Source: a virus. Taken from it: DNA of 22,148 nt. Below are positions 9,607 through 19,034 of the stretch, one piece after another. Location of the stretch: positions 1 through 22,148 of the IMG/VR virus record IMGVR_UViG_3300034072_002213; one strand, written 5' to 3'. Position numbers and translations under genes: made by a program. The notes beneath the pieces are model-generated. The model searched no databases, was not told the origin of the DNA, and saw only the letters and a list, made by a program, of their open reading frames with translations. Position 1 is the first letter of the stretch. Each line of letters opens with the position of its first letter.

Positions 9607-11858
9607 TGGGCTGGTGGCTCGCCGATCGGCGGCGCGGCCAGGCCGAGGGCGTGATCAGCCGCTTCGATCCCGTCTATTGGACGGTCAACTTCCCCCGGCC
9701 GATGATGGCGAGCGTGGTGACCACCGCGCCCGATGCGTTGCGGGTGGACCTGGTATTCCAGCGGCGCGGCGATCTGGCGGGGTTGATCTGGGAGGCGGAG
9801 GACCGGCACGACCATCCGCTGCTCGCCTATGCGACGCGGCGGGACTTTCGCGACTGCCGGTTGCGGTTTCGCTGGCGCTCCTCGGGCGTGGTGGCGCTGG
9901 ATGGCGTGCAGGGACCGGTGCTGACGATCGAGGGGCGCGACGCCGGCGGGGCGGCACGAACCTGGTATGTGCGGCTGTGGAACTATGCCAGCGGCGGCCC
10001 CGAGGATGCCGAGATCGAGCTCGATTTCGCCACGGTGCAAGGCGGCTTCCTGTTGCCGGACGAGGCGGCGCCGGTCTGGGCGGGGGATGTCGACCGGATG
10101 TTCGTCTCGCTGGTGCCGCCCGGCTATGTCGCCGGGGATGCCACCCCGGCGGCGGGCGAAGGCTGGGTGGAGCTTAGCGCGATCCGCTGCGAGGGGCCGG
10201 GATCGGTGCTGGCGATCGGCGATGTGGTGGTGCCCGAACATGGGCTGTCGATCGCGACCGGCTATGACGATGCGTATAACCAGACCCCCGCCCGGCTGCT
10301 GCGCAACATGCTGCAGCTCGGCTATCGCGGCGACATCCTCCATTATGTGGGGATGAGCCATTATTTCCGGCTCGAGCCGGCCTCGTGTGGCTTCTATGCC
10401 AGCCTGGCCGGGGGCGCGCTCAACCGGGCCTGCGCGGCCTGGCATGGCGATTTCGCGGCCCGTGCCAAGGCGCTGGGCTATGGGGTGATCTGGTCGCTGA
10501 GCTATGAGCTGCTCGATCAGCATTGCTGGGGCGACTGGAAGCAGCGCGCGGCCGATGGCAGCCCGGCGCTGACCGGTTGGGATCCGCCGTCGACGCTGCT
10601 CTCGCCGGCGCATGCCGGGGCGATGGCCTATCTGCGCGCGGTGGCGCTGGCCTTTGTCGGCATCGCGCAGGGCGCGGGGCTGGCGGTGCAGTTCCAGGTC
10701 GGCGAGCCCTGGTGGTGGGTGATGGCCGATGGCCGGCTGTGCATCCATGACGCGGCGGCCGGGGCGGCGCTGGGCAATCCGGCGGCGCAGAATCTGCGGG
10801 GTGCGGTGGATACCGCCGTGCTGGATGCGGCAGGGGCGCTGCTGGCGGCCTCGACGCTGGGCTTGCGGGATGCCGTGAAGGCGGCGGCACCGGCGGCGAC
10901 GGTGTTGCTGCTCGCCTATCTGCCCACCGTGCTCGATCCCGCCATGCCGGAGGCGAAGCGGGCCAACCTGCCGCTTGGCTGGGCATCGCCTGCCTTCGAT
11001 CTGCTGCAGCTGGAGGACTATGACTGGGCGGCGGCGGGCAATGCGGCGGCGTCGGACAAGGCAGTGGCGGCGACGCAGGCGCGGCTCGGCTATCCCCCGG
11101 CGCGGCAGCAGTATCTCGCCGGCTTCGTGCTGCGCAGTGCAGACAAGGCGCAGTGGCGGGCGATCGCCGAGGCGGCGGCGCGTGCGCGATCGCGCGGGGT
11201 GGCGGCGACCTATGTGTGGGCGCTGCCGCAGGTGGCGCGCGACGGCTTCACCCATTTCGACCAGGAGGCGGATGTGACGCCCTTTGACGACCTGCTGTTT
11301 CCGATCGCGCTGGGGCGCGAGGCGGAAGTGGCGCCCGAACTCTCGACGGCGATCGTGACCAGCGCGGGCGGGGCGGAGCGGCGCAACGCGGCCTGGGCCG
11401 AGGCGCGGACGCGGTATGACGTCGGCCCCGGCGTGCGCTCCGAGGCGGACATCGCGGCGCTGCTCGCCTTTTTTCGGGCGCGGATGGGGCCGGCGCGGGG
11501 CTTTCGCCTGCGCGACCCCTTTGATTTCGAGGGCAGGGACGAACCGCTGGGCACAGGCGACGGTGCGACCGCGCGCTTCCAGCTGGTGAAGACCTATGGC
11601 GAGAGCGTGCGGCGGATCACCCGGCCGGTGGCGGGCACCGTGGCGGTGAAGCTGGCGGGCGTGGCGACCACCGCGTTCACGCTGGGCGCGGGCGGCGTGG
11701 TGACGCTCGATACCGCGCCGGCGGCGGGCGTGCGGGTGACGGCGTCGTTCGTGTTCGACGTGCCGGTGCGCTTTGCCGAGGACCAGCTGCGGGTAAGCCG
11801 CTCGACCTTCCTCGCCGGCGTCGCGGCGTCGGTGCCGCTGGTGGAGATCCGCGAATGA
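9606..11858 (+). CDS. TIM-barrel/DUF2460 fusion distal tail protein (GTA gp12)
   Basis: This 750-aa protein joins two modules. Residues about 575-750 are DUF2460, the distal tail protein of GTAs, with RGFRLRDPFDFEG, RITRPVAGTVAVKL and FDVPVRFAEDQLRVSRSTFL. Ahead lies a beta-rich N-terminal part (about 1-210) and a TIM-barrel-like region (about 215-560) with glycosidase-style segments SLSYELLDQHCWGDW (near 298), FQVGEPWWWV (E367) and LLQLEDYDW (E470). In R. capsulatus, gp12 is only about 210 aa, so the extra 550 residues are a sphingomonad-style extension. It may degrade or bind a surface polysaccharide, or form an outer tail sheath; enzymatic activity is inference. The ATG at 9606 overlaps the gp11 stop. 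The open frame extends 66 codons upstream over gp11 only. Confidence 0.88.
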   Translation: MGWWLADRRRGQAEGVISRFDPVYWTVNFPRPMMASVVTTAPDALRVDLVFQRRGDLAGLIWEAEDRHDHPLLAYATRRDFRDCRLRFRWRSSGVVALDGVQGPVLTIEGRDAGGAARTWYVRLWNYASGGPEDAEIELDFATVQGGFLLPDEAAPVWAGDVDRMFVSLVPPGYVAGDATPAAGEGWVELSAIRCEGPGSVLAIGDVVVPEHGLSIATGYDDAYNQTPARLLRNMLQLGYRGDILHYVGMSHYFRLEPASCGFYASLAGGALNRACAAWHGDFAARAKALGYGVIWSLSYELLDQHCWGDWKQRAADGSPALTGWDPPSTLLSPAHAGAMAYLRAVALAFVGIAQGAGLAVQFQVGEPWWWVMADGRLCIHDAAAGAALGNPAAQNLRGAVDTAVLDAAGALLAASTLGLRDAVKAAAPAATVLLLAYLPTVLDPAMPEAKRANLPLGWASPAFDLLQLEDYDWAAAGNAAASDKAVAATQARLGYPPARQQYLAGFVLRSADKAQWRAIAEAAARARSRGVAATYVWALPQVARDGFTHFDQEADVTPFDDLLFPIALGREAEVAPELSTAIVTSAGGAERRNAAWAEARTRYDVGPGVRSEADIAALLAFFRARMGPARGFRLRDPFDFEGRDEPLGTGDGATARFQLVKTYGESVRRITRPVAGTVAVKLAGVATTAFTLGAGGVVTLDTAPAAGVRVTASFVFDVPVRFAEDQLRVSRSTFLAGVAASVPLVEIRE

Positions 11859-14101
11859 GCTGGCTGGAAGGGGCGCTGACCACCGTCACCCTGTGCTGGC
11901 GGATCGAGCGGTGCGATGGGGTCACGATCGGGCTTACCGCGCATGACCGCGACCTGATGCTGGACGGGCTGCTCTATCGTGCCGCGCCCGGGATGACGCC
12001 GAGCGCCGTCGAGCGCAGCGCGTCGCTGGAGGCGGACAGCATGGATGTGCACGGGGCGCTCTCTGGCGAGGCGATCTCGGAGGCCGATCTGCTCGCCGGG
12101 CGCTGGGACGGTGCGCGGGTGGCGCTGTTCGCGACCGACTGGACCGCACCCGAGGCGACGGTGCCGCTGGGCACCGGCACGATCGGCGGAATCGAGACGC
12201 GGGACGGCACGATCACCGCCGAGCTGCGCGGGCAGACCGCGGCGTTCGATGCGCCGGCGGCGGAGGCGACTTCGCCGGATTGCCGGGCGACGCTGGGGGA
12301 TGCGCGGTGTCGCGTGGCGATGGCCGAGCGGCGGCGGTTCGCGCGGGTGCTGGCGGTGGCCGAGTCGGTGGTGACGGTCGATGCGGCGGAGCCGTCGGCC
12401 AATGCCTATGGCGGCGGGCGGCTGCGCTGGTTCGGCGGTGCGAACAGCGGGCTTGAGGATGCGATCGCCGCGTCCGACGGCGCCGTACTGACGCTGCGGC
12501 GCCCGCCGCGGTTCGCGGGCGTGGGGGCCTTGGTCGAACTGGTCGAAGGCTGTGACGGGCGGTTCGAAACCTGTGTTGCCCGCCATCACCTTTTCTTGGT
12601 CGCAAACATCCTGTAACAGCCTGAACGGCAAGGATAATTCTGCGGTTCGAACGCCCTCATTCCAGTCATATTCCAGATGAGAGCCTAGGGTGAGATTCAG
12701 CACGATACGCTTGTCCTCGAACGTGCCATTACTCCAAAGATTCCAAGGGTTTGCGATGAACTCGAAAGCGGTTCGAAAAGTCGCGTCATAGTCGGTTGCG
12801 ACAGTGCCGCATGACGACACTTTTCCGTCGAGAACCAGCTTTTCCAGCTCCAGCTTTTCGACCTCGCTTTCCAAACGGGCGATCACAGAGCGGCTTTCCG
12901 ATTCAACGATCTTGTCGAGAATCTGGCCGATCTTCTTCTCGATCAGGGATGCTTCGCGCTTGAACGCTGCGCGGCCCTCGTGCGCTTTCGACTCCGCCTC
13001 ATTCCAACGCTTGCGGAAAATTTTCGAAAACAGATTGAGCAGTTCCGGGCGCGGCGTCAGCTTGGTTAGCATCCCCTCGAATGCGCTTTCAACCGTATCC
13101 CGCTTCACCGACTTGCCGAAGCGGTCGCATCCGCGATGGCGGCAGACGTAATAGGGATAGCGACCGTTACGTCCCTTGGTCCAGTTTGCGGTCATGGGGT
13201 GATTGCAATCACCGCAGGTGACAAAGCCGCGCAGCGGGAAATCGACATGGATGTCGGAACGAGTCGGCGCGAGAGGCTTGCCCGCAATCCGCTCCTGCAC
13301 CTGATGAAAGGTCGCAAGCGAGATGATTGCCTCGTGCTGTCCCGGACGCAGTGACACGTCCCAAGCGTCGCTCTGGACGTAGCCCGCGTATATAGGATGG
13401 GTCATGATCCGGTGCGCCTGCTGGTTCGTCAGGTGCCCGTGACGTGTCACCGGAAAGCCCGCATGTGACTCAAAGAACCGCTTTACCTCTGCCTTGGATT
13501 TGAAGCGACCGGACGCGAAGCCCGTCAGCCCCTCCTCAATTATGGACGCAAGCGGCTCGACGCGAACAAGGATGCTACCTCCTGCTCTGCTCTTCTCGTA
13601 GCGGTAGCCAATCGGCGCGTTGAAGACCCAGAACCCGCCGAGCATTCGTGCCCGCATACGGTTCTTGGCCTGCTCGCCATTTTTCTGGCGCTGGTGCTGG
13701 GCAACGCTCGCCAGAAGATGCTCAATGAGGATGCTGTCAGAGTCCGAGCCGAACTCAATGGATGGCGACTCCAGAGTCGCCCCGGCCCGGAAAATCAGCT
13801 CCTTCAGATCGAAGTGATTGCGGACATCGCGAGCCATGCGGCTGATGTCGTCGATAATGACGACCAATCCCGAATTGCTTCGCGCATTGCGGATGAAGGC
13901 CAGCATCTCATCGAAGCCGGGACGTTGCGCCAGTTTACCCGACACGTCGTCGGTAAAGACGCCCACGACCTTGTGACCGCGATGCTTCGCATATTCGCGA
14001 CAACGGGTCTCTTGCGAGGAAAGGCCGTTGCCCTCTCTCGCCTGCTTCTTGGTGCTGACGCGGCAGTAGATGACTGCCTGTTGGTTGGTTTTTCTGGTCA
14101 T
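11594..14101 (-). CDS. Large serine recombinase (integrase) with chimeric C-terminal run-on into gp13/gp12
   Basis: Residues 1 to about 505 are a complete large serine recombinase. The catalytic domain has Ser16 (IYCRVSTKKQ) and DDISRMARD (84-92). A recombinase DNA-binding domain follows (about 155-280, MTHPIYAGYV), then a zinc ribbon with Cys 296, 299, 320 and 325 (TCGDCNHPM ... YYVCRHRGC) and a coiled coil at about 360-435. It would integrate and excise the element. The start is an ATG overlapping the upstream small gene (ATGA). There is no stop before the element edge, near codon 506. The open frame continues for about 330 residues antisense to gp13 and gp12, ending at 11594. The native stop probably lies across the attachment site in the circular form. 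The run-on is host DNA, and whether an 835-aa protein is made is unknown. Confidence 0.88.
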   Translation of the reverse strand: MTRKTNQQAVIYCRVSTKKQAREGNGLSSQETRCREYAKHRGHKVVGVFTDDVSGKLAQRPGFDEMLAFIRNARSNSGLVVIIDDISRMARDVRNHFDLKELIFRAGATLESPSIEFGSDSDSILIEHLLASVAQHQRQKNGEQAKNRMRARMLGGFWVFNAPIGYRYEKSRAGGSILVRVEPLASIIEEGLTGFASGRFKSKAEVKRFFESHAGFPVTRHGHLTNQQAHRIMTHPIYAGYVQSDAWDVSLRPGQHEAIISLATFHQVQERIAGKPLAPTRSDIHVDFPLRGFVTCGDCNHPMTANWTKGRNGRYPYYVCRHRGCDRFGKSVKRDTVESAFEGMLTKLTPRPELLNLFSKIFRKRWNEAESKAHEGRAAFKREASLIEKKIGQILDKIVESESRSVIARLESEVEKLELEKLVLDGKVSSCGTVATDYDATFRTAFEFIANPWNLWSNGTFEDKRIVLNLTLGSHLEYDWNEGVRTAELSLPFRLLQDVCDQEKVMAGNTGFEPPVTAFDQFDQGPHAREPRRAPQRQYGAVGRGDRILKPAVRTAEPAQPPAAIGIGRRLRRIDRHHRLGHRQHPREPPPLGHRHATPRIPQRRPAIRRSRLRRRRIERRGLPAQLGGDRAVPRLDSADRAGAQRHRRLGCGPVGREQRHPRTVPAPGEQIGLRDRLARERPVHIHAVRLQRRAALDGARRHPGRGTIEQPVQHQVAVMRGKPDRDPIAPLDPPAQGDGGQRPFQPAHSRISTSGTDAATPARKVERLTRSWSSAKRTGTSNTNDAVTRTPAAGAVSSVTTPPAPSVNAVVATPASFTATVPATGRVIRRTLSP
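11855..12616 (+). CDS. DUF2163 tail hub protein (GTA gp13), 3' end truncated by element insertion
   Basis: This 253-aa reading frame is DUF2163 up to residue about 241-243. Family marks are LTAHDRDL (28-35), DCRATLGDARC (142-152), LRWFGGANSG (190-199) and EGCDGRFETC (231-240). The four Cys (143, 152, 233, 240) are in the arrangement I associate with Fe-S binding in GTA/lambda tail hubs. Intact homologues continue from the last Cys into a conserved segment rich in NFRGEPHLPG before stopping. Here the sequence switches instead to RHHLFLVANIL and a stop encoded by lower-GC foreign DNA. The protein therefore loses about 30 C-terminal residues and is probably non-functional while the element is inserted. 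Confidence 0.9.
   Translation: MSWLEGALTTVTLCWRIERCDGVTIGLTAHDRDLMLDGLLYRAAPGMTPSAVERSASLEADSMDVHGALSGEAISEADLLAGRWDGARVALFATDWTAPEATVPLGTGTIGGIETRDGTITAELRGQTAAFDAPAAEATSPDCRATLGDARCRVAMAERRRFARVLAVAESVVTVDAAEPSANAYGGGRLRWFGGANSGLEDAIAASDGAVLTLRRPPRFAGVGALVELVEGCDGRFETCVARHHLFLVANIL
12555..12590. other. Probable attachment site / left junction of the integrated element in gp13
   Basis: The + strand reads as gp13 up to CGGTTCGAAACCTGT (12560-12574). By about 12585 it no longer matches the expected gp13 continuation and becomes lower-GC element sequence. The recombinase reading frame crosses this point in the opposite direction. The exact crossover dinucleotide cannot be fixed without the right junction, which is outside the window. 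The core contains GGTTCGAAACC, which resembles a tRNA T-loop, a common target of related integrases. Confidence 0.6.
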
Positions 14102-14286
14102 GGCGCTAACTGCCTCTTGCGGCCTTTGGTGTTGATCGCGCCCTCACTACGGAGGTCAACAAGCTCCGAAACCTCGGATTTCGGCAGGTTAGCACGACTT
14201 TCCGCGCCATTAAAAGCATAGTTTGCGCGCTCGGTTAGCGATAATTGAACAGAGGATTTCTTGAATCGCTGATCGATAAAGGACAA
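14098..14286 (-). CDS. Small hypothetical protein coupled to the recombinase
   Basis: This 62-aa reading frame ends with a stop overlapping the recombinase ATG (ATGA), so the two are probably co-translated. It begins at a TTG with no clear ribosome binding site. The frame stays open upstream for another 22 codons with protein-like sequence (DRVNLLIHFLDSVALSFIDQ), but no ATG or GTG is available. The part QLSLTERANYAFNG is compositionally sound. It may be the 3' part of a gene whose 5' part lies in another frame at 14310-14396. Basic C-terminus; function unknown, perhaps a directionality factor or recombinase partner by position. Confidence 0.5.
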   Translation of the reverse strand: MSFIDQRFKKSSVQLSLTERANYAFNGAESRANLPKSEVSELVDLRSEGAINTKGRKRQLAP

Positions 14287-14309
14287 TGCAACTGAGTCGA
14301 GAAAGTGGA

Positions 14310-14396
14310 TCAGAAGATTGACGCGATCTTGAGAAATAGAAATGCCCCAAGTTCATTGCGAAGCTCCTGCATTTCTTCCGGCGACCACATTTTCAT
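14310..14396 (-). pseudogene. Candidate 5' fragment of the recombinase-partner gene, frame-shifted
   Basis: A short open frame starting MKMWSPEEMQELRNELGAFL reads well as the N-terminus of a small helical protein, then stops at 14310. The neighbouring frame, open from just before this point and continuing to 14098, reads SQDRVNLLIHFLDSVALSF and onward. Joining the two across TTTCTATTTCTCAAG would give a single ~97-aa protein. A one-base indel or a programmed shift would explain this. Two unrelated short ORFs is the alternative. The same frame is open upstream to an ATG at 14588, but that part looks less protein-like. Confidence 0.4.
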
Positions 14397-14569
14397 CAAA
14401 CCCGTCCCCGCCGCTACAGCGGCGCTCGATTGAGCATGGTCAGGTTGATCTACGAGCGCGTAATGCCGCTCGCGGGGGGATAATCGAATGCCCCCTAGCC
14501 ATTCCCCTAAATATCGGGCGTCCCTCACGCCCTTATTATTTTTGCCTTCCGCTATCGCGTTCAGCCTAT

Positions 14570-14584
14570 TGTTACATCGTAACA
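14570..14584. promoter_or_regulatory. Short perfect dyad TGTTAC-ATC-GTAACA, possible operator
   Basis: In the 231-base gap between the small ORFs (to 14396) and the three-repeat gene (from 14628) lies a perfect 6+6 palindrome with a 3-base spacer. A dyad of this size upstream of the recombinase transcription unit is a plausible regulator binding site. No convincing -35/-10 pair could be placed over it. Nothing else is recognised in this gap. Confidence 0.3.
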
Positions 14585-14627
14585 TCAACGAAAAAGGGGA
14601 TGCAATTTTCTCATGTGTTGCGTTGCT

Positions 14628-15428
14628 TCATGCATTCGGCTGTATGCGATAAAGCGCCAGCACGAATTCGATATGCTCAGGTAGAGCCGTCACCGTCTGA
14701 CGCAACGTCCACGCTTTCACCATTGAGCCGTTGAGACTGTGGGGCGACGATGTTGCCTTGTCGAGAATTCTAGCGGCGGAAATCCCGGTCCGCTCGATTT
14801 CGTGGCGCAAAGCGTAGAACTCCGCTCGACTGATCTTGCGATACCCGTCGCGTCGCGGCGATGGGTTATTCTCTCGTGCTTCACGAGGCGACTTGTCAGG
14901 CAGACCGGACAAATGACCGATGAGAAAGTCCCAGTGATCCGCGCGCACCGTTCGCACGCTCCCACGACGTAGCGCCACCAGAACGCCAAGCGTCAAACCT
15001 GCCGGGGTCGCTTCATACCTCGCCAGACCTTCGACCGATTGCCCCGTTCGCTTCAGCTCACCCTTGAAGCGGGCAACCATATCGGGTGTGATGTCGATAC
15101 GACGATCATCGCGTCGCCCTCGCGGGCCACTTTTCGATTTATGCGCTACGCCATCCGGGCAATCCGCAGCCGATGGCAGGGCTGCCAATGCGGCGCAGAC
15201 AAATTTCAGGTGATCGACGCGCGCCGAAGGCGATGTGCGCAACCATCCATTGACGGTTCGGGCATCGAGACCGAGGGGCAGATCGCGCCGCCCCTTGAGC
15301 AGCAGGCGCGCAGGTACGCCAGTGCGTCGAAACTCGGCTTTCAACGCCATTCGCAGGGGCTGTGTCAGGTCGATGATGGCTGCATCGCTTGAATAGCTTT
15401 GCAGAGCTATCAGGTCTTCAAGGGTCAC
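14628..15428 (-). CDS. Protein with three tandem ~60-aa repeats, possible DNA-binding regulator
   Basis: I do not recognise a named family. The 266-aa protein contains three diverged copies of one domain at about residues 24-85, 115-177 and 201-263. Each starts with a basic helix ending in E-x-x-RTG (AEFRRTGVPARLL, GELKRTGQSVEGLA, HEIERTGISAARIL). Each continues through a ~15-residue linker to a helix with V..W or V..L, and closes with H..F....L..LP (VDHLKFVCAALAALP, ADHWDFLIGHLSGLP, PEHIEFVLALYRIQ). Charged linkers (about 92-112, 178-197) separate them. The pattern resembles repeated helix-turn-helix units. The start is GTG with no clear ribosome binding site. It is divergent from the next gene across an AT-rich 101-base region. 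A regulator of the recombinase is a guess from position. Confidence 0.78.
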   Translation of the reverse strand: MTLEDLIALQSYSSDAAIIDLTQPLRMALKAEFRRTGVPARLLLKGRRDLPLGLDARTVNGWLRTSPSARVDHLKFVCAALAALPSAADCPDGVAHKSKSGPRGRRDDRRIDITPDMVARFKGELKRTGQSVEGLARYEATPAGLTLGVLVALRRGSVRTVRADHWDFLIGHLSGLPDKSPREARENNPSPRRDGYRKISRAEFYALRHEIERTGISAARILDKATSSPHSLNGSMVKAWTLRQTVTALPEHIEFVLALYRIQPNA

Positions 15429-15468
15429 GTGAAAGGATACAACTGGATAGATAAAATTTTAGATAAAT

Positions 15469-15497
15469 TTGCCGCTAATTGTAGGTAAAAATAATAA
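15469..15497 (+). promoter_or_regulatory. Candidate sigma-70-type promoter for the 15530 gene
   Basis: In the AT-rich divergent region there is TTGCCG (15469-15474), a 17-base spacer, and TAATAA (15492-15497), about 33 bases before the ATG at 15530. Spacing is ideal and both hexamers are close to consensus. The neighbouring AAAATTTT and repeated AGATAAA tracts could also serve the divergent gene. Confidence 0.5.
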
Positions 15498-15529
15498 TGC
15501 CTTATTCATAACCCGCTATTCTGTGTCGC

Positions 15530-16639
15530 ATGACAGTAACACCTGAACAGCAAGGCCGGAATGATACCAGAAGCGATGCTTCTGCTGCAAACTTGTTCGA
15601 AGGCGGTGCGCTTGGCTTCATGGATCGCGTCGGCGACGCGATGACAAAGCGCTTCGACGAAATGTATTCGTCAGAGAATTTGCACAAGATGATGGATAAG
15701 GCCTTGGAAAATCTCCCGCCCGAAATCCGCGAGGGGTTGAGCCAGCTTTTCAATGCGCTGAGCGGTGCGCTATCCGGCAACGATCCGGCGAAGAGCCAGG
15801 AATATGAAACCATCAAGGAAGTGTACGGCACGGGCGGGACCGATAACGAAGCCGTGCGCATGGCGTCCAATTTTGCCCAGCGGGACGATGCCCAGTTCGC
15901 AGCAGCCGTAACCATCGGCAACGGCAGCGGCGCGATCACGGAAGTGAACGGCATCCAGTATGTGAACGGCAAGCCCGTCAACGACAGCGACGACGACGAC
16001 GCTGAGGCCTTGGAGGAAATGGCCGATCAGATGGAGCGTGAGCGCAAGTGGTCGGAAGAGACGCATCGCTTCGGCGACGTGGAAATGTCCGGGGACGAGT
16101 GGGAAGAATTGAGCGAACAGCTTTCCGGGAACACTCCGCTGCGCAAGCGCATGATCGAACGATTGATGGCGCAGGGACAATCCCAGAAACAAGCGGAAGA
16201 GACCGTCGATAAGGCGGCTGAAGTTTCGCACATCATGAATGTACCGGAATCGCAGCGCACCCCAGAGCAGCGACGGATTCTGACCGAGGCTGAGAAAAAG
16301 CCGGGCGTTGCTCAGGTGATAAAATGGGGTGCTGAAGCCCGTAGCAATGAGGTTTCCAGAGATGAAAGCTATGCACCGATGGGAGCTGACAGAAATGTTT
16401 CTGTTCAAAACAGAACCGACGCATTCGCCTCCGATATTGATCTGTCAGGCGCAGGAATGAGAAGGTCGATTTCTAACGAAGGCACCACCCATACATTTCC
16501 CTCTGCGCCAGATTTGACAGCGGCCCATGCAAAGGCTGTGGCTGCAACCGAGCCTCTTGAGCGCGGTCCGCAGCAAATTGCAGCGGCGACCGTTAAGCCG
16601 CCAGCGCCAGCCGCAAACATGAGTGGCTTGGACGTTTAA
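15530..16639 (+). CDS. Acidic hypothetical protein of the element
   Basis: This 369-aa protein is not recognised. It has no signal peptide or membrane segment. Residues 25-80 are amphipathic (LGFMDRVGDAMTKRFDEMY, LPPEIREGLSQLFNALSGAL). A small beta motif ITEVNGIQYVNGKPV (136-150) leads into a very acidic stretch (DSDDDDAEALEE, 152-163) and a charged helical region (165-255). The C-terminus (320-369) is low-complexity Ala/Pro with KPPAPAANMSGLDV. The acidic, partly disordered layout could fit a secreted or DNA-mimic protein, but this is only a suggestion. It is transcribed from its own AT-rich promoter region and overlaps the convergent next gene by 4 bases at their stops. Confidence 0.78.
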   Translation: MTVTPEQQGRNDTRSDASAANLFEGGALGFMDRVGDAMTKRFDEMYSSENLHKMMDKALENLPPEIREGLSQLFNALSGALSGNDPAKSQEYETIKEVYGTGGTDNEAVRMASNFAQRDDAQFAAAVTIGNGSGAITEVNGIQYVNGKPVNDSDDDDAEALEEMADQMERERKWSEETHRFGDVEMSGDEWEELSEQLSGNTPLRKRMIERLMAQGQSQKQAEETVDKAAEVSHIMNVPESQRTPEQRRILTEAEKKPGVAQVIKWGAEARSNEVSRDESYAPMGADRNVSVQNRTDAFASDIDLSGAGMRRSISNEGTTHTFPSAPDLTAAHAKAVAATEPLERGPQQIAAATVKPPAPAANMSGLDV

Positions 16640-17316
16640 TTCCCGCCGGGAGCGATACCGCGCACATCGAGGGCAGCCAAAGCGGTGCCGCGAGCGCGCT
16701 CAAGTCCGGCAGGAGTGTAATCCAGTGTACCCAAACGAACGAGTAATAGCGGTTCGCCGTCCGCCTTGCGAGCATAGATTGCGCCGACGCGTGCAGGCAC
16801 ATTTCCGGTAAGCACCATTGGAAGACCGATGCGCTCAGTCCCGTCCTTCGCGCGGTGAACCGTATCAGCGACGACCATAGGGCGCGCGCCTACCTTCGCG
16901 TCTGCTCGCAGCATGTCGTCCATCTTGCCACCGAGGAGGGCCTGTTGGGGAATTTCCGACCGTGCCGCATCAAAAATGCGTACGTTGGTCAGCTTGGCTG
17001 CGACGCACATGCTTGTTGAAGTTTGAGAGCGGGAGCGGTCGCCTTCGAGTTGGTAGCCGATTGATCCATCGGCGTTGGAGGTTACGGCGTTCGCGTATTC
17101 ATCGACAGCAAGGCCGCCATCTCTCTGCGCGTCGTTGCGGAGCGAGAGACGGTCGCCGATAATCATGGTCCGCTGGCCTTCGGCTTTCAGCGCGGCGTTC
17201 ATTTCCGCCATCGGAAGACACTGCTTTGCGTCCATCGCCATTGCAGGGGCGGAACACGCCATAGCCGCAGCCATCGTTGCACCAAATGCTGAACGCAGAA
17301 CCGTTGATCTTTTCAT
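16636..17316 (-). CDS. Secreted hypothetical protein with signal peptide
   Basis: This 226-aa protein starts with a clear Sec signal peptide: KRSTVLRS, then a hydrophobic core (AFGATMAAAMACSAPAMA), with likely cleavage after AMA before MDAKQC. I chose the ATG at 17316, preceded by CGAGGCTAAG, because it puts the signal at the N-terminus; an in-frame start 9 codons upstream would not. The mature part contains MIIGDRLSLRNDAQRDG, two further Cys in the mature part (MDAKQC and SMCVAAK) and a C-terminal LLLVRLGTLDYTPAGLERAR. No family is recognised. A periplasmic role linked to conjugation or surface function is possible. It faces the preceding gene, and the two stops share a TTAA. Confidence 0.77.
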   Translation of the reverse strand: MKRSTVLRSAFGATMAAAMACSAPAMAMDAKQCLPMAEMNAALKAEGQRTMIIGDRLSLRNDAQRDGGLAVDEYANAVTSNADGSIGYQLEGDRSRSQTSTSMCVAAKLTNVRIFDAARSEIPQQALLGGKMDDMLRADAKVGARPMVVADTVHRAKDGTERIGLPMVLTGNVPARVGAIYARKADGEPLLLVRLGTLDYTPAGLERARGTALAALDVRGIAPGGN

Positions 17317-17403
17317 CTTAGCCTCGAAATATTGATCGTCCAATCACACCGTCTGGCCCGTCAATTCTCGGCTTTGTCTGCTGGCTTTTGCCAGTCTCTA
17401 ATC

Positions 17404-17537
17404 CCATCGTTTATGGGATCGAATTTTCTTCTTTTCTATTTCGATACGTGGTATCTCTTTTTCCAAGGAAAAGCGGCTTTGCGGTCGTTTCATGGGGCGG
17501 AGAAGGCGGCGGTTGCCGCCAGTCCCATAAACGATGG
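17404..17537. repeat. Perfect 15-bp inverted repeat bracketing 104 bp beside the resolvase gene
   Basis: The sequence CCATCGTTTATGGGA (17404-17418) recurs as its exact reverse complement at 17523-17537, 31 bases before the resolvase ATG. Each copy is itself a short palindrome (CCCAT-N5-ATGG), as expected of a serine recombinase half-site pair. Inside and around are further small dyads: CTGGC/GCCAG (17381-17394), TTTTCC-AA-GGAAAA (17459-17472) and GGCGGC-GGTT-GCCGCC (17505-17520). Inverted sites would favour inversion of the 104-bp segment. A resolution site or a small non-autonomous insertion are the alternatives. No flanking target duplication is evident. Confidence 0.6.
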
Positions 17538-17568
17538 CTCCTGAGACCAAGCCGGACACCAGAAAGCC

Positions 17569-18177
17569 ATGACCGCCAAAGCGTTAACGCCCGCCGGGGC
17601 AGAACCCGGTCGCCTGATAGGCTATGCCCGTGTCAGCACCCAAGACCAGAACCCCGCCCTTCAGCATGACGCCCTGCTGGCGGCAGGGTGTCACGCCCTC
17701 TACGAGGACCGGATTTCGGGCCTCTCCCGCTCCCGCGAGGGGCTGGACGGGGCCTTGGCGGATATCCAGCCCGGCGACAGGCTCGTCGTCTGGCGGCTTG
17801 ATCGACTTGGCCGCTCCTTGCGCCACGTCATGACCGTGATCGAAGAACTGACCGAGCGCGGTGCTGGGGTCGTCAGCCTGTGCGAAAATCTGGATACAGA
17901 GACGGACGCAGGCCAGCTTTATTCGACCGTGCTGGCCATGATCGCCCATGTCGAGCGCCGGATGATCGTGTCCCGGACCAAGGCCGGGCTACAGGCCGCC
18001 AAGGATCGCGGCGTTCGCCTTGGACCCAAACCAAAGATGGATATGGATCAGATTGCAGAGGCACGGCGGCTGGTGAATGGCGGCATGAAGGCTGAGGCTG
18101 TCGCGGCCCGCTATGGCGTGGGCCGCTCTACTCTCTTCCGAAATTTTGATAAAATTGCGCACCTGAGCAGGATGTAA
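17569..18177 (+). CDS. Small serine resolvase/invertase
   Basis: This 202-aa protein is a resolvase/invertase-family recombinase. The catalytic domain has Ser23 in IGYARVSTQDQNP, the arginine motif VVWRLDRLGRSLRH (73-86), and ENLDTETDAGQLYSTVLAMI before the long E helix (ERRMIVSRTKAGLQAAKDRG). A C-terminal helix-turn-helix (about 162-192, AVAARYGVGRSTLFRNF) binds the site. Length and order are those of Tn3-resolvase and Hin/Gin-type enzymes. It lacks the extra domains of the large recombinase near the element end, so it probably serves a local inversion, dimer resolution or element maintenance. The inverted 15-bp repeats just upstream are the likely substrate. The ribosome binding site is weak (CAGAAAG). 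Confidence 0.92.
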   Translation: MTAKALTPAGAEPGRLIGYARVSTQDQNPALQHDALLAAGCHALYEDRISGLSRSREGLDGALADIQPGDRLVVWRLDRLGRSLRHVMTVIEELTERGAGVVSLCENLDTETDAGQLYSTVLAMIAHVERRMIVSRTKAGLQAAKDRGVRLGPKPKMDMDQIAEARRLVNGGMKAEAVAARYGVGRSTLFRNFDKIAHLSRM

Positions 18178-18260: not shown

Positions 18261-19034
18261 ATGGGCGCACTGAGTGAAGAATTTAATAAAGACTGGCTGG
18301 AATTTAAAACAAGTCCTGATGCGGTTGTAACGGTCAGATCATTAGGTTCGGTCACGAGTGACGGAAAGGAGATTTTTCCGACTGTTGAGCTTGACCAAGC
18401 TGATTTGAATTACCCAATCCACAACGACCTGCTGCACGAATGGCACAAGGAAAACGGAGAAATCCACCGCGTCGATGGTCCAGCGATCATTATTCGTGAC
18501 CCCGAAAACCCGGAACCGCCGCTGTTTGAGGGCTGGTATCGACATGGAAAGCTTCACCGTGAAGACGGCCCCGCTATCACACGACGAAAAGGTGCCTGTC
18601 TTGAACAGGAATGGTGGCAAAATGATGTGCTTCACCGCGAGGACGGGCCAGCGGAGCTATGGTTGGACGAGAACGGAGCCGAAAGATTTCAAAGATGGTC
18701 TCGAAACGGCGTCGAACATCGCGAGGGCGGTCCAGCCTATATTTCCAAAGACACCCGTACTGGTGTTGAACATCAAGAAATATGGATCAAGAATGGCGAG
18801 TATCATCGTATCGATGGACCAGCTTTCATACTTCGTGACTCAGTGACTGGCCAAGTTACCGAAGAACAATGGCGGAGAGACGGTGAGCCTTTCAGGCAGA
18901 ACGGACCAGCCACCATATGCGGTCACGCTGGCCAGAAACCGTATCTGGTCGATCATTACTTTATGAACGGCGTCCCTATCGACCGACCTCGCGAGCTGGA
19001 TCAGATAATATTGCCGAAGGGGCCAAAGATTTAG
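18261..19034 (+). CDS. Hypothetical protein with six W..NG..HR.DGPA repeats
   Basis: This 257-aa protein has an N-terminal acidic part (1-55) followed by at least six tandem units of 26-30 residues with core W-x(2-3)-NG/HG-x-x-HR-x-DGPA. The DGPA-type tetrapeptides fall at about 72, 102, 128, 156, 185 and 214. A diverged final unit (FMNGVPIDRPRELDQIIL) closes it. The repeat resembles MORN-variant or toxin-antitoxin-repeat-like proteins seen in phages and mobile elements; molecular function is not known. Base composition is the most AT-rich in the window (about 45-50% GC by eye), suggesting recent acquisition. A GGAGA lies 12 bases before the ATG. It converges on, and overlaps by 4 bases, the mobilization operon. 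Confidence 0.8.
   Translation: MGALSEEFNKDWLEFKTSPDAVVTVRSLGSVTSDGKEIFPTVELDQADLNYPIHNDLLHEWHKENGEIHRVDGPAIIIRDPENPEPPLFEGWYRHGKLHREDGPAITRRKGACLEQEWWQNDVLHREDGPAELWLDENGAERFQRWSRNGVEHREGGPAYISKDTRTGVEHQEIWIKNGEYHRIDGPAFILRDSVTGQVTEEQWRRDGEPFRQNGPATICGHAGQKPYLVDHYFMNGVPIDRPRELDQIILPKGPKI

What the first reader, a model, noticed from the sequence alone, without database searches (positions are those of the whole stretch)
17404..17537. Candidate invertible 104-bp switch next to a serine invertase/resolvase
A perfect 15-bp inverted repeat, each copy internally palindromic, brackets 104 bp between a secreted-protein gene (- strand) and the resolvase gene (+ strand). Inverted recombination sites beside a Hin-like enzyme are the hallmark of DNA inversion. 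Flipping could change expression of the secreted protein or of the resolvase itself. The segment also holds two small hairpins. I could not find a convincing promoter in it.
Basis: partly seen in the sequence, partly recalled or inferred. Interest (0 to 1): 0.65.

Follow-up and report, generated by a model that had tools for sequence, protein, structure and literature searches.

The report
Flipping DNA switch beside its recombinase
A 104-base stretch of DNA between a recombinase gene and a secreted-protein gene on a bacterial mobile element is found the other way round, letter for letter, in a related bacterium, so it is very probably a real on/off switch made by flipping DNA.

Summary
The repeats are the core plus inner half of two 24-bp dyad sites (17395-17418, 17523-17546). 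In genome G1008 the same 134 bp is 100% identical but inverted, while both flanks keep the window's order at 92-93% identity. A sister system shows the same: G588 and G574 differ by a clean inversion of a 131/131 identical segment. Eight loci of the window's family have paired sites whose central dinucleotides match in inverted orientation, at a conserved helical phase. The switch sits in integrase-bearing mobile elements of Sphingomonadales. Shown: the sites, their conservation, and natural inversion. Inferred: that the adjacent recombinase does it, and that the segment carries a promoter facing the recombinase in the window's orientation and the secreted gene when flipped. The secreted protein's function is unknown. 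It works like Hin/Gin inversion, but the enzyme lacks Hin's Fis-enhancer-contacting basic residues.

The parts
17395..17418 (+). Recombination site 1 (24 bp), TCTCTAATCCC-AT-CGTTTATGGGA; holds repeat arm 17404-17418
   Evidence: 19/24 inverted match to site 2; site at the same position in 7 other loci of the family; breakpoint of the G1008 inversion
17523..17546 (-). Recombination site 2 (24 bp), TCCCATAAACG-AT-GGCTCCTGAGA on the + strand; holds repeat arm 17523-17537
   Evidence: 22 bp before the recombinase start, same place in the orthologs
17419..17522 (.). Invertible 104-bp segment
   Evidence: 104/104 identical but reversed in G1008; separate BLAST of the genome gives three pieces in strand order -, +, -
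17429..17457 (+). Promoter-like element inside the segment (TTCTTT-17-TATCTC with TG before the second hexamer), facing the recombinase in this orientation
   Evidence: TG-N-TA conserved at this place in all 7 distinct spacers of the family; weak by consensus scan; inferred
17569..18177 (+). Small serine recombinase (202 aa), presumed invertase of the switch
   Evidence: Pfam Resolvase 1.4e-41 and HTH_7 1.5e-9; PHROG DNA invertase 8.8e-61; catalytic region aligned with Gin and gamma-delta
16636..17316 (-). Secreted (signal-peptide) protein, 226 aa, the gene on the other side of the switch
   Evidence: Relatives beside a recombinase homolog in 9 other genomes; no Pfam, NCBIfam, PHROG or PADLOC match; confident beta-rich model (pLDDT 82) without fold match
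15530..16639 (+). 369-aa protein gene, convergent with and overlapping the secreted gene by 4 bp; part of the conserved module
   Evidence: Homologs at the same place in L097-L101 and L048; a convergent ~300-aa gene at the same place in the sister locus L081
12700..14101 (-). Large serine integrase of the mobile element that carries the switch
   Evidence: Pfam Resolvase, Recombinase, Zn_ribbon_recom; homologs in L097, L098, L099, L100, L103, L050

Best explanation
It is a site-specific DNA-inversion switch. SHOWN: two 24-bp dyad sites in inverted orientation flank 104 bp between a secreted-protein gene and a small serine recombinase, and the segment exists in nature in both orientations (window against G1008; also G588 against G574 in a sister system). 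INFERRED: the adjacent recombinase binds both sites, cuts at the central AT, rotates and rejoins, flipping the segment. INFERRED, weaker: the segment carries one promoter plus leader. In the window's orientation it reads into the recombinase; flipped, as in G1008, it reads into the secreted-protein gene, so the cell makes either more recombinase or the secreted protein.
For: (1) Inversion of this very segment: window 13794-17418 and 17523-17720 align to G1008 on the minus strand (86% and 92%), while 17404-17537 aligns on the plus strand at 100%. The spacer equals the reverse complement of the window's, and both outer half-sites are in place; a separate search tool shows the same three pieces. 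(2) Sister system: G588 and G574, 131/131 bases identical only when reversed, flanks 82% and 95%. (3) Eight loci of the family carry site pairs with central dinucleotides AT/AT or GT/AC, i.e. matching when one site is reversed (8 of 8), against 3 of 8 (the palindromic AT ones) read directly; spacing is 126-128 bp (12.0-12.2 turns) or 117-118 bp (11.1-11.2 turns). (4) The enzyme is closest to Gin invertase among solved structures and matches the PHROG DNA invertase family. (5) Spacers of the family align in one register with a conserved TG-N-TA pointing at the recombinase; only G1008 is reversed.
Against: Both orientations were seen only between species, never in one culture, so switching rate and reversibility are unknown. 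In G1008 the recombinase is cut after about residue 52, so its present orientation cannot be changed by its own copy. All the other loci of the family share the window's orientation; this may be a preferred state or rare switching. No consensus sigma-70 promoter was found in the window or G1073, and a scan hit in G574 points the other way. I chose the 24-mers of the more divergent orthologs by dyad and position, which favours matching cores. The protein tree does not place the enzyme clearly with or apart from the other inverted-site enzymes.
Confidence: 0.86

Rival explanations
1. A resolvase res site: site 1 is the crossover site and site 2 an accessory binding site; the enzyme resolves multimers and the inverted repeat only reflects two half-sites of one protein.
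For: Several homologs (L033, L034, L035, L036, L045) have a dyad site upstream plus directly repeated half-sites near the start codon, which looks like res.
Against: The segment is found inverted, which resolution does not produce; the cores match in inverted orientation across the orthologs; site 2 is a dyad, not direct half-sites.
Confidence: 0.04
2. The segment inverts, but it is a trace of past recombination or an assembly effect of short repeats, or is driven by another enzyme, with no regulatory role.
For: Only between-species orientation differences were seen; G1008's recombinase is broken; 15-bp repeats could in principle confuse assembly.
Against: Two independent pairs; sites and helical spacing kept while flanks diverge; the window's enzyme is intact; 15 bp is too short for efficient homologous recombination (general knowledge).
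Confidence: 0.07
3. The segment inverts but each end carries its own outward promoter, so flipping exchanges two promoters rather than turning genes on and off.
For: In G574 a promoter-like TTGTCA-16-CATATT reads toward the secreted gene from the other end of the segment.
Against: That element is not evident in the homologous spacer of G392, nor found by the scan in the window.
Confidence: 0.12
4. No recombination: the repeats are operators or attenuator hairpins for autoregulation of the two divergent genes.
For: Copy 1 is scored terminator-like; the sites lie where an operator would.
Against: The observed inversion with breakpoints inside the repeats.
Confidence: 0.02

Closest known systems
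Hin / Gin / Cin / Pin serine DNA invertases (Salmonella fljBA switch, phage Mu G segment)
   Same: Small serine recombinase with HTH_7; two ~26-bp dyad sites in inverted orientation with matching central dinucleotide; reversal of the DNA between them; enzyme gene next to the switch.
   Different: Segment only 104 bp, against about 1-3 kb (general knowledge); the enzyme gene lies outside the segment and faces away from the target gene; the Hin helix-B basic residues that touch the Fis enhancer (Lys47, Arg48, Lys51; PMC3798978) are Asp, Gly, Ala here (alignment), so a Hin-type Fis enhancer is not expected.
Invertible promoters (invertons), including those on Bacteroidales ICEs (PMC8748976)
   Same: Short segment between inverted repeats next to an invertase gene on an integrative element, thought to gate a neighbouring gene.
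   Different: Sphingomonadales rather than Bacteroidales; the gated gene encodes an unknown secreted protein; the promoter appears to serve the invertase itself in one orientation; promoter not yet proven.
Tn3/gamma-delta resolvase and res
   Same: Same enzyme superfamily and catalytic domain; binding sites directly upstream of the enzyme gene.
   Different: Weaker sequence match (99 against 158 bits for Gin), sites in inverted relation, inversion observed.

Membership tests
Hin/Gin-type DNA invertase system | Serine recombinase catalytic domain plus C-terminal HTH_7 | tested here: met
   alignment to Gin and gamma-delta
Hin/Gin-type DNA invertase system | Two dyad crossover sites in inverted orientation with the same central dinucleotide | tested here: met
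   8 of 8 loci
Hin/Gin-type DNA invertase system | DNA between the sites occurs in both orientations | tested here: met
   window against G1008; G588 against G574
Hin/Gin-type DNA invertase system | Fis-bound recombinational enhancer and the enzyme surface that contacts it | tested here: not met
   Helix-B basic residues replaced (GLKRALK in Gin, GLDGALA here, PMC3798978); enhancer DNA itself not tested. So it is filed as working like Hin, not as a Fis-dependent Hin-family member
Hin/Gin-type DNA invertase system | The neighbouring enzyme catalyses the inversion | not testable with these tools
   needs biochemistry or a gene deletion
Invertible promoter (inverton) | Inverted repeats with both orientations present | tested here: met
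   between genomes only, not in the reads of one sample
Invertible promoter (inverton) | A promoter inside the invertible segment | tested here: inconclusive
   No consensus hit; conserved TG-N-TA at the expected place in 7 spacers
Tn3-type res/resolvase | Accessory subsites (II/III) acting with one crossover site, product is deletion | tested here: not met
   Second site is an inverted crossover-like site; inversion is seen instead

The most novel reading that the evidence does not exclude
A latching switch: one promoter inside the 104-bp segment drives either the invertase or the secreted protein, never both, so turning the secreted protein on starves the cell of the enzyme needed to turn it off. 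This module, with a serine invertase that does not use the Fis enhancer, would be a standard part of an unrecognised family of Sphingomonadales integrative elements.
Probability: 0.35. Interest if true: 0.72.

Novelty: new variant of a known kind. Interest (0 to 1): 0.6.

Why it matters
Invertible switches are well known in Bacteroidales and enteric bacteria; the literature searches here found none described in Sphingomonadales elements (open-access papers only). This one is small, conserved in at least eight genomes, has a sister form with the same gene order, and includes a natural flip at 100% identity, so it is a compact model for asking how a serine invertase works at about 12 helical turns without a Hin-type enhancer. 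It also marks a gene for an unknown secreted protein that a mobile element keeps under a switch, which suggests exposure to selection from outside the cell.

Tried and rejected
Exact 15-mer scan of viral contigs: 14 single hits and no second copy, so not a dispersed element end and no close viral relative. DNA and protein searches of plasmids found only recombinases below 60% protein identity and no secreted-protein relative. Viral-contig searches with the secreted protein and with both alignments found nothing. I first leaned toward a res site because distant homologs look res-like; dropped after the G588/G574 and G1008 inversions. The protein tree does not settle kinship with other invertases. 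Fold searches of the secreted protein gave nothing significant. The PADLOC scan was negative. A mistake caught on the way: loci from minus-strand genome matches are not turned round, so the first look at L032's upstream region was of the wrong side (corrected).

Full report
OBSERVATION. The 15-bp repeat is exact (17404-17418, 17523-17537, 104 bp between). No other copy occurs in the window with up to 2 mismatches. Shuffling the intergenic DNA 2000 times never gave a 15-bp inverted repeat; sequences like the whole window do so in 4 of 100. A scan for the best inverted pair of 24-mers gives 19/24, against at most 17 in 30 shuffles.

SETTING. The window is a 22-kb viral-database record. Its first 12.6 kb are a gene-transfer-agent-like head-tail cluster (HK97 capsid). 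From about 12.6 kb on it is a mobile element with a large serine integrase (12.7-14.1 kb) and a VirD4-like coupling protein (19.4-20.9 kb). The finding lies inside that element, not in the phage-like part.

FINDING RELATIVES. No useful close relative was found in plasmids or viral contigs. Searching whole genomes by way of the window's capsid gene led to a family and order of genomes in which the closest relatives lie: G575 (64% recombinase identity, same neighbours), then G777, and in its genus G1008, G1044, G1073, G1046, G1071 and the less similar G1055 and G1057.

INVERSION OF THIS SEGMENT. G1008 encodes the secreted protein at 98% identity. Window 13794-17418 and 17523-17720 align to it on the minus strand (86% and 92%), but 17404-17537 aligns on the plus strand at 100%. 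Oriented alike, the G1008 spacer equals the reverse complement of the window's spacer in all 104 positions, with site 1 identical and site 2 differing by one base. Immediate flanks are 93% (left 300 bp) and about 92% (right 170 bp) identical. A separate search reports three pieces in strand order -, +, -. G1008's recombinase is interrupted after residue 52 and nothing beyond was found in the 18 kb taken, so that copy is probably locked.

SISTER SYSTEM. A more distant homolog (41%) in G588 and G574 has sites CGACAATAAGG-AC-CGTTTTTGTCA and TGACAAAAACG-GT-CGTTTTTGACA. The 131 bp between them is 131/131 identical when reversed and 32/131 when read directly; flanks are 82% and 95% identical. The gene order is the same as in the window: a ~300-aa gene meets a signal-peptide gene with overlapping ends, then the segment, then the recombinase. 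Here both enzymes are intact, so inversion is not confined to a broken copy.

SITES. In the eight loci of the window's family the two sites sit at the same two places. Central dinucleotides are AT/AT (window, G1008, G1073) or GT/AC (the other five). Read as inverted sites all eight match; read directly only the palindromic AT ones do. Centre-to-centre distance is 126-128 bp in six loci and 117-118 bp in two, close to one helical turn less. In the window the perfect 15 bp is core plus inner half-site; in G1044, G1073 and G575 the shared part is core plus outer half-site. The G777 recombinase reads in two frames.

WHAT THE SEGMENT CARRIES. Spacers align best in the same register in all loci but G1008; the support is strong among window, G575, G1044, G1073 and G1046 and weak for G777 and G1071 against the rest. 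All seven distinct spacers share TG-N-TA about 30 bp from site 1, followed by a T run and, in several, AAGGAAA and a GC-rich hairpin. G1044 reads TTCAAT-17-TAGATA, G1073 TTCAAT-17-TAAATA, G575 TTGCAA-16-TAATAT; the window's version is poor (TTCTTT-17-TATCTC) and the consensus scan finds nothing. If this is a promoter it reads into the recombinase in the window and into the secreted gene in G1008. This step is inference.

THE ENZYME. Pfam Resolvase plus HTH_7; PHROG DNA invertase; best solved relatives Gin 158 bits, Tn3 resolvase 99, gamma-delta 94. Hin needs basic helix-B residues to grip the Fis-bound enhancer (PMC3798978); Gin has GLKRALK where this enzyme has GLDGALA. So it works like Hin, but Fis dependence is not expected, and membership in the Fis-dependent group is not claimed. 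In the tree the window, G575 and G777 enzymes group together (85/89) with deeper relations open.

THE SECRETED PROTEIN. Signal peptide and a confident beta-rich, two-part fold (pLDDT 82) with no family or fold match. I commit to a periplasmic or surface role under phase variation, without further precision.

KNOWN WORK. Hin-type inversion and invertible promoters are established (review PMC11868660), including invertible promoters on Bacteroidales ICEs (PMC8748976). Searches for descriptions in Sphingomonadales or Alphaproteobacteria found none in the open-access library; subscription papers were not searchable.

VERDICT. Regulatory effect, enzyme assignment and reversibility remain to be shown.

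Noticed in passing
window 11855-12616 and 12700-14101: The element appears inserted near the 3' end of a gene-transfer-agent-like gene: the protein aligns to G016's copy for 243 of 253 residues and then diverges, beside the large serine integrase. The related element in G1008 ends at what reads like a tRNA-Ser gene.
   Followed up: partly
17419-17522; L081/L082 spacers: In both orientation-discordant pairs the invertible spacer is 100% identical although flanks differ by 5-18%. Strong constraint or recent exchange of the module; unexplained.
   Followed up: partly
L097 8681-8836 (G1008): Recombinase cut after about residue 52 by sequence that looks like an insertion-element end; the switch is probably locked in the secreted-gene-facing state.
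   Followed up: partly
L085, L086, L087, L088, L083, L084: Further related elements (several with the integrase or a VirD4-like protein) have a recombinase preceded by two inverted sites with cores such as GGTTCC/GGAACC or GGACCG/CGGTCG; a wider family of invertible modules.
   Followed up: partly
L033, L034, L035, L036, L045, L017-L019: Homologous recombinases with a dyad site plus direct half-sites near the start codon, i.e. res-like; a clean contrast group within one enzyme family.
   Followed up: no
window 18261-19034: 257-aa protein with repeated 'HREDGPA' motifs downstream of the recombinase; a partial homolog lies near G1071's element (L103). No family match.
   Followed up: no
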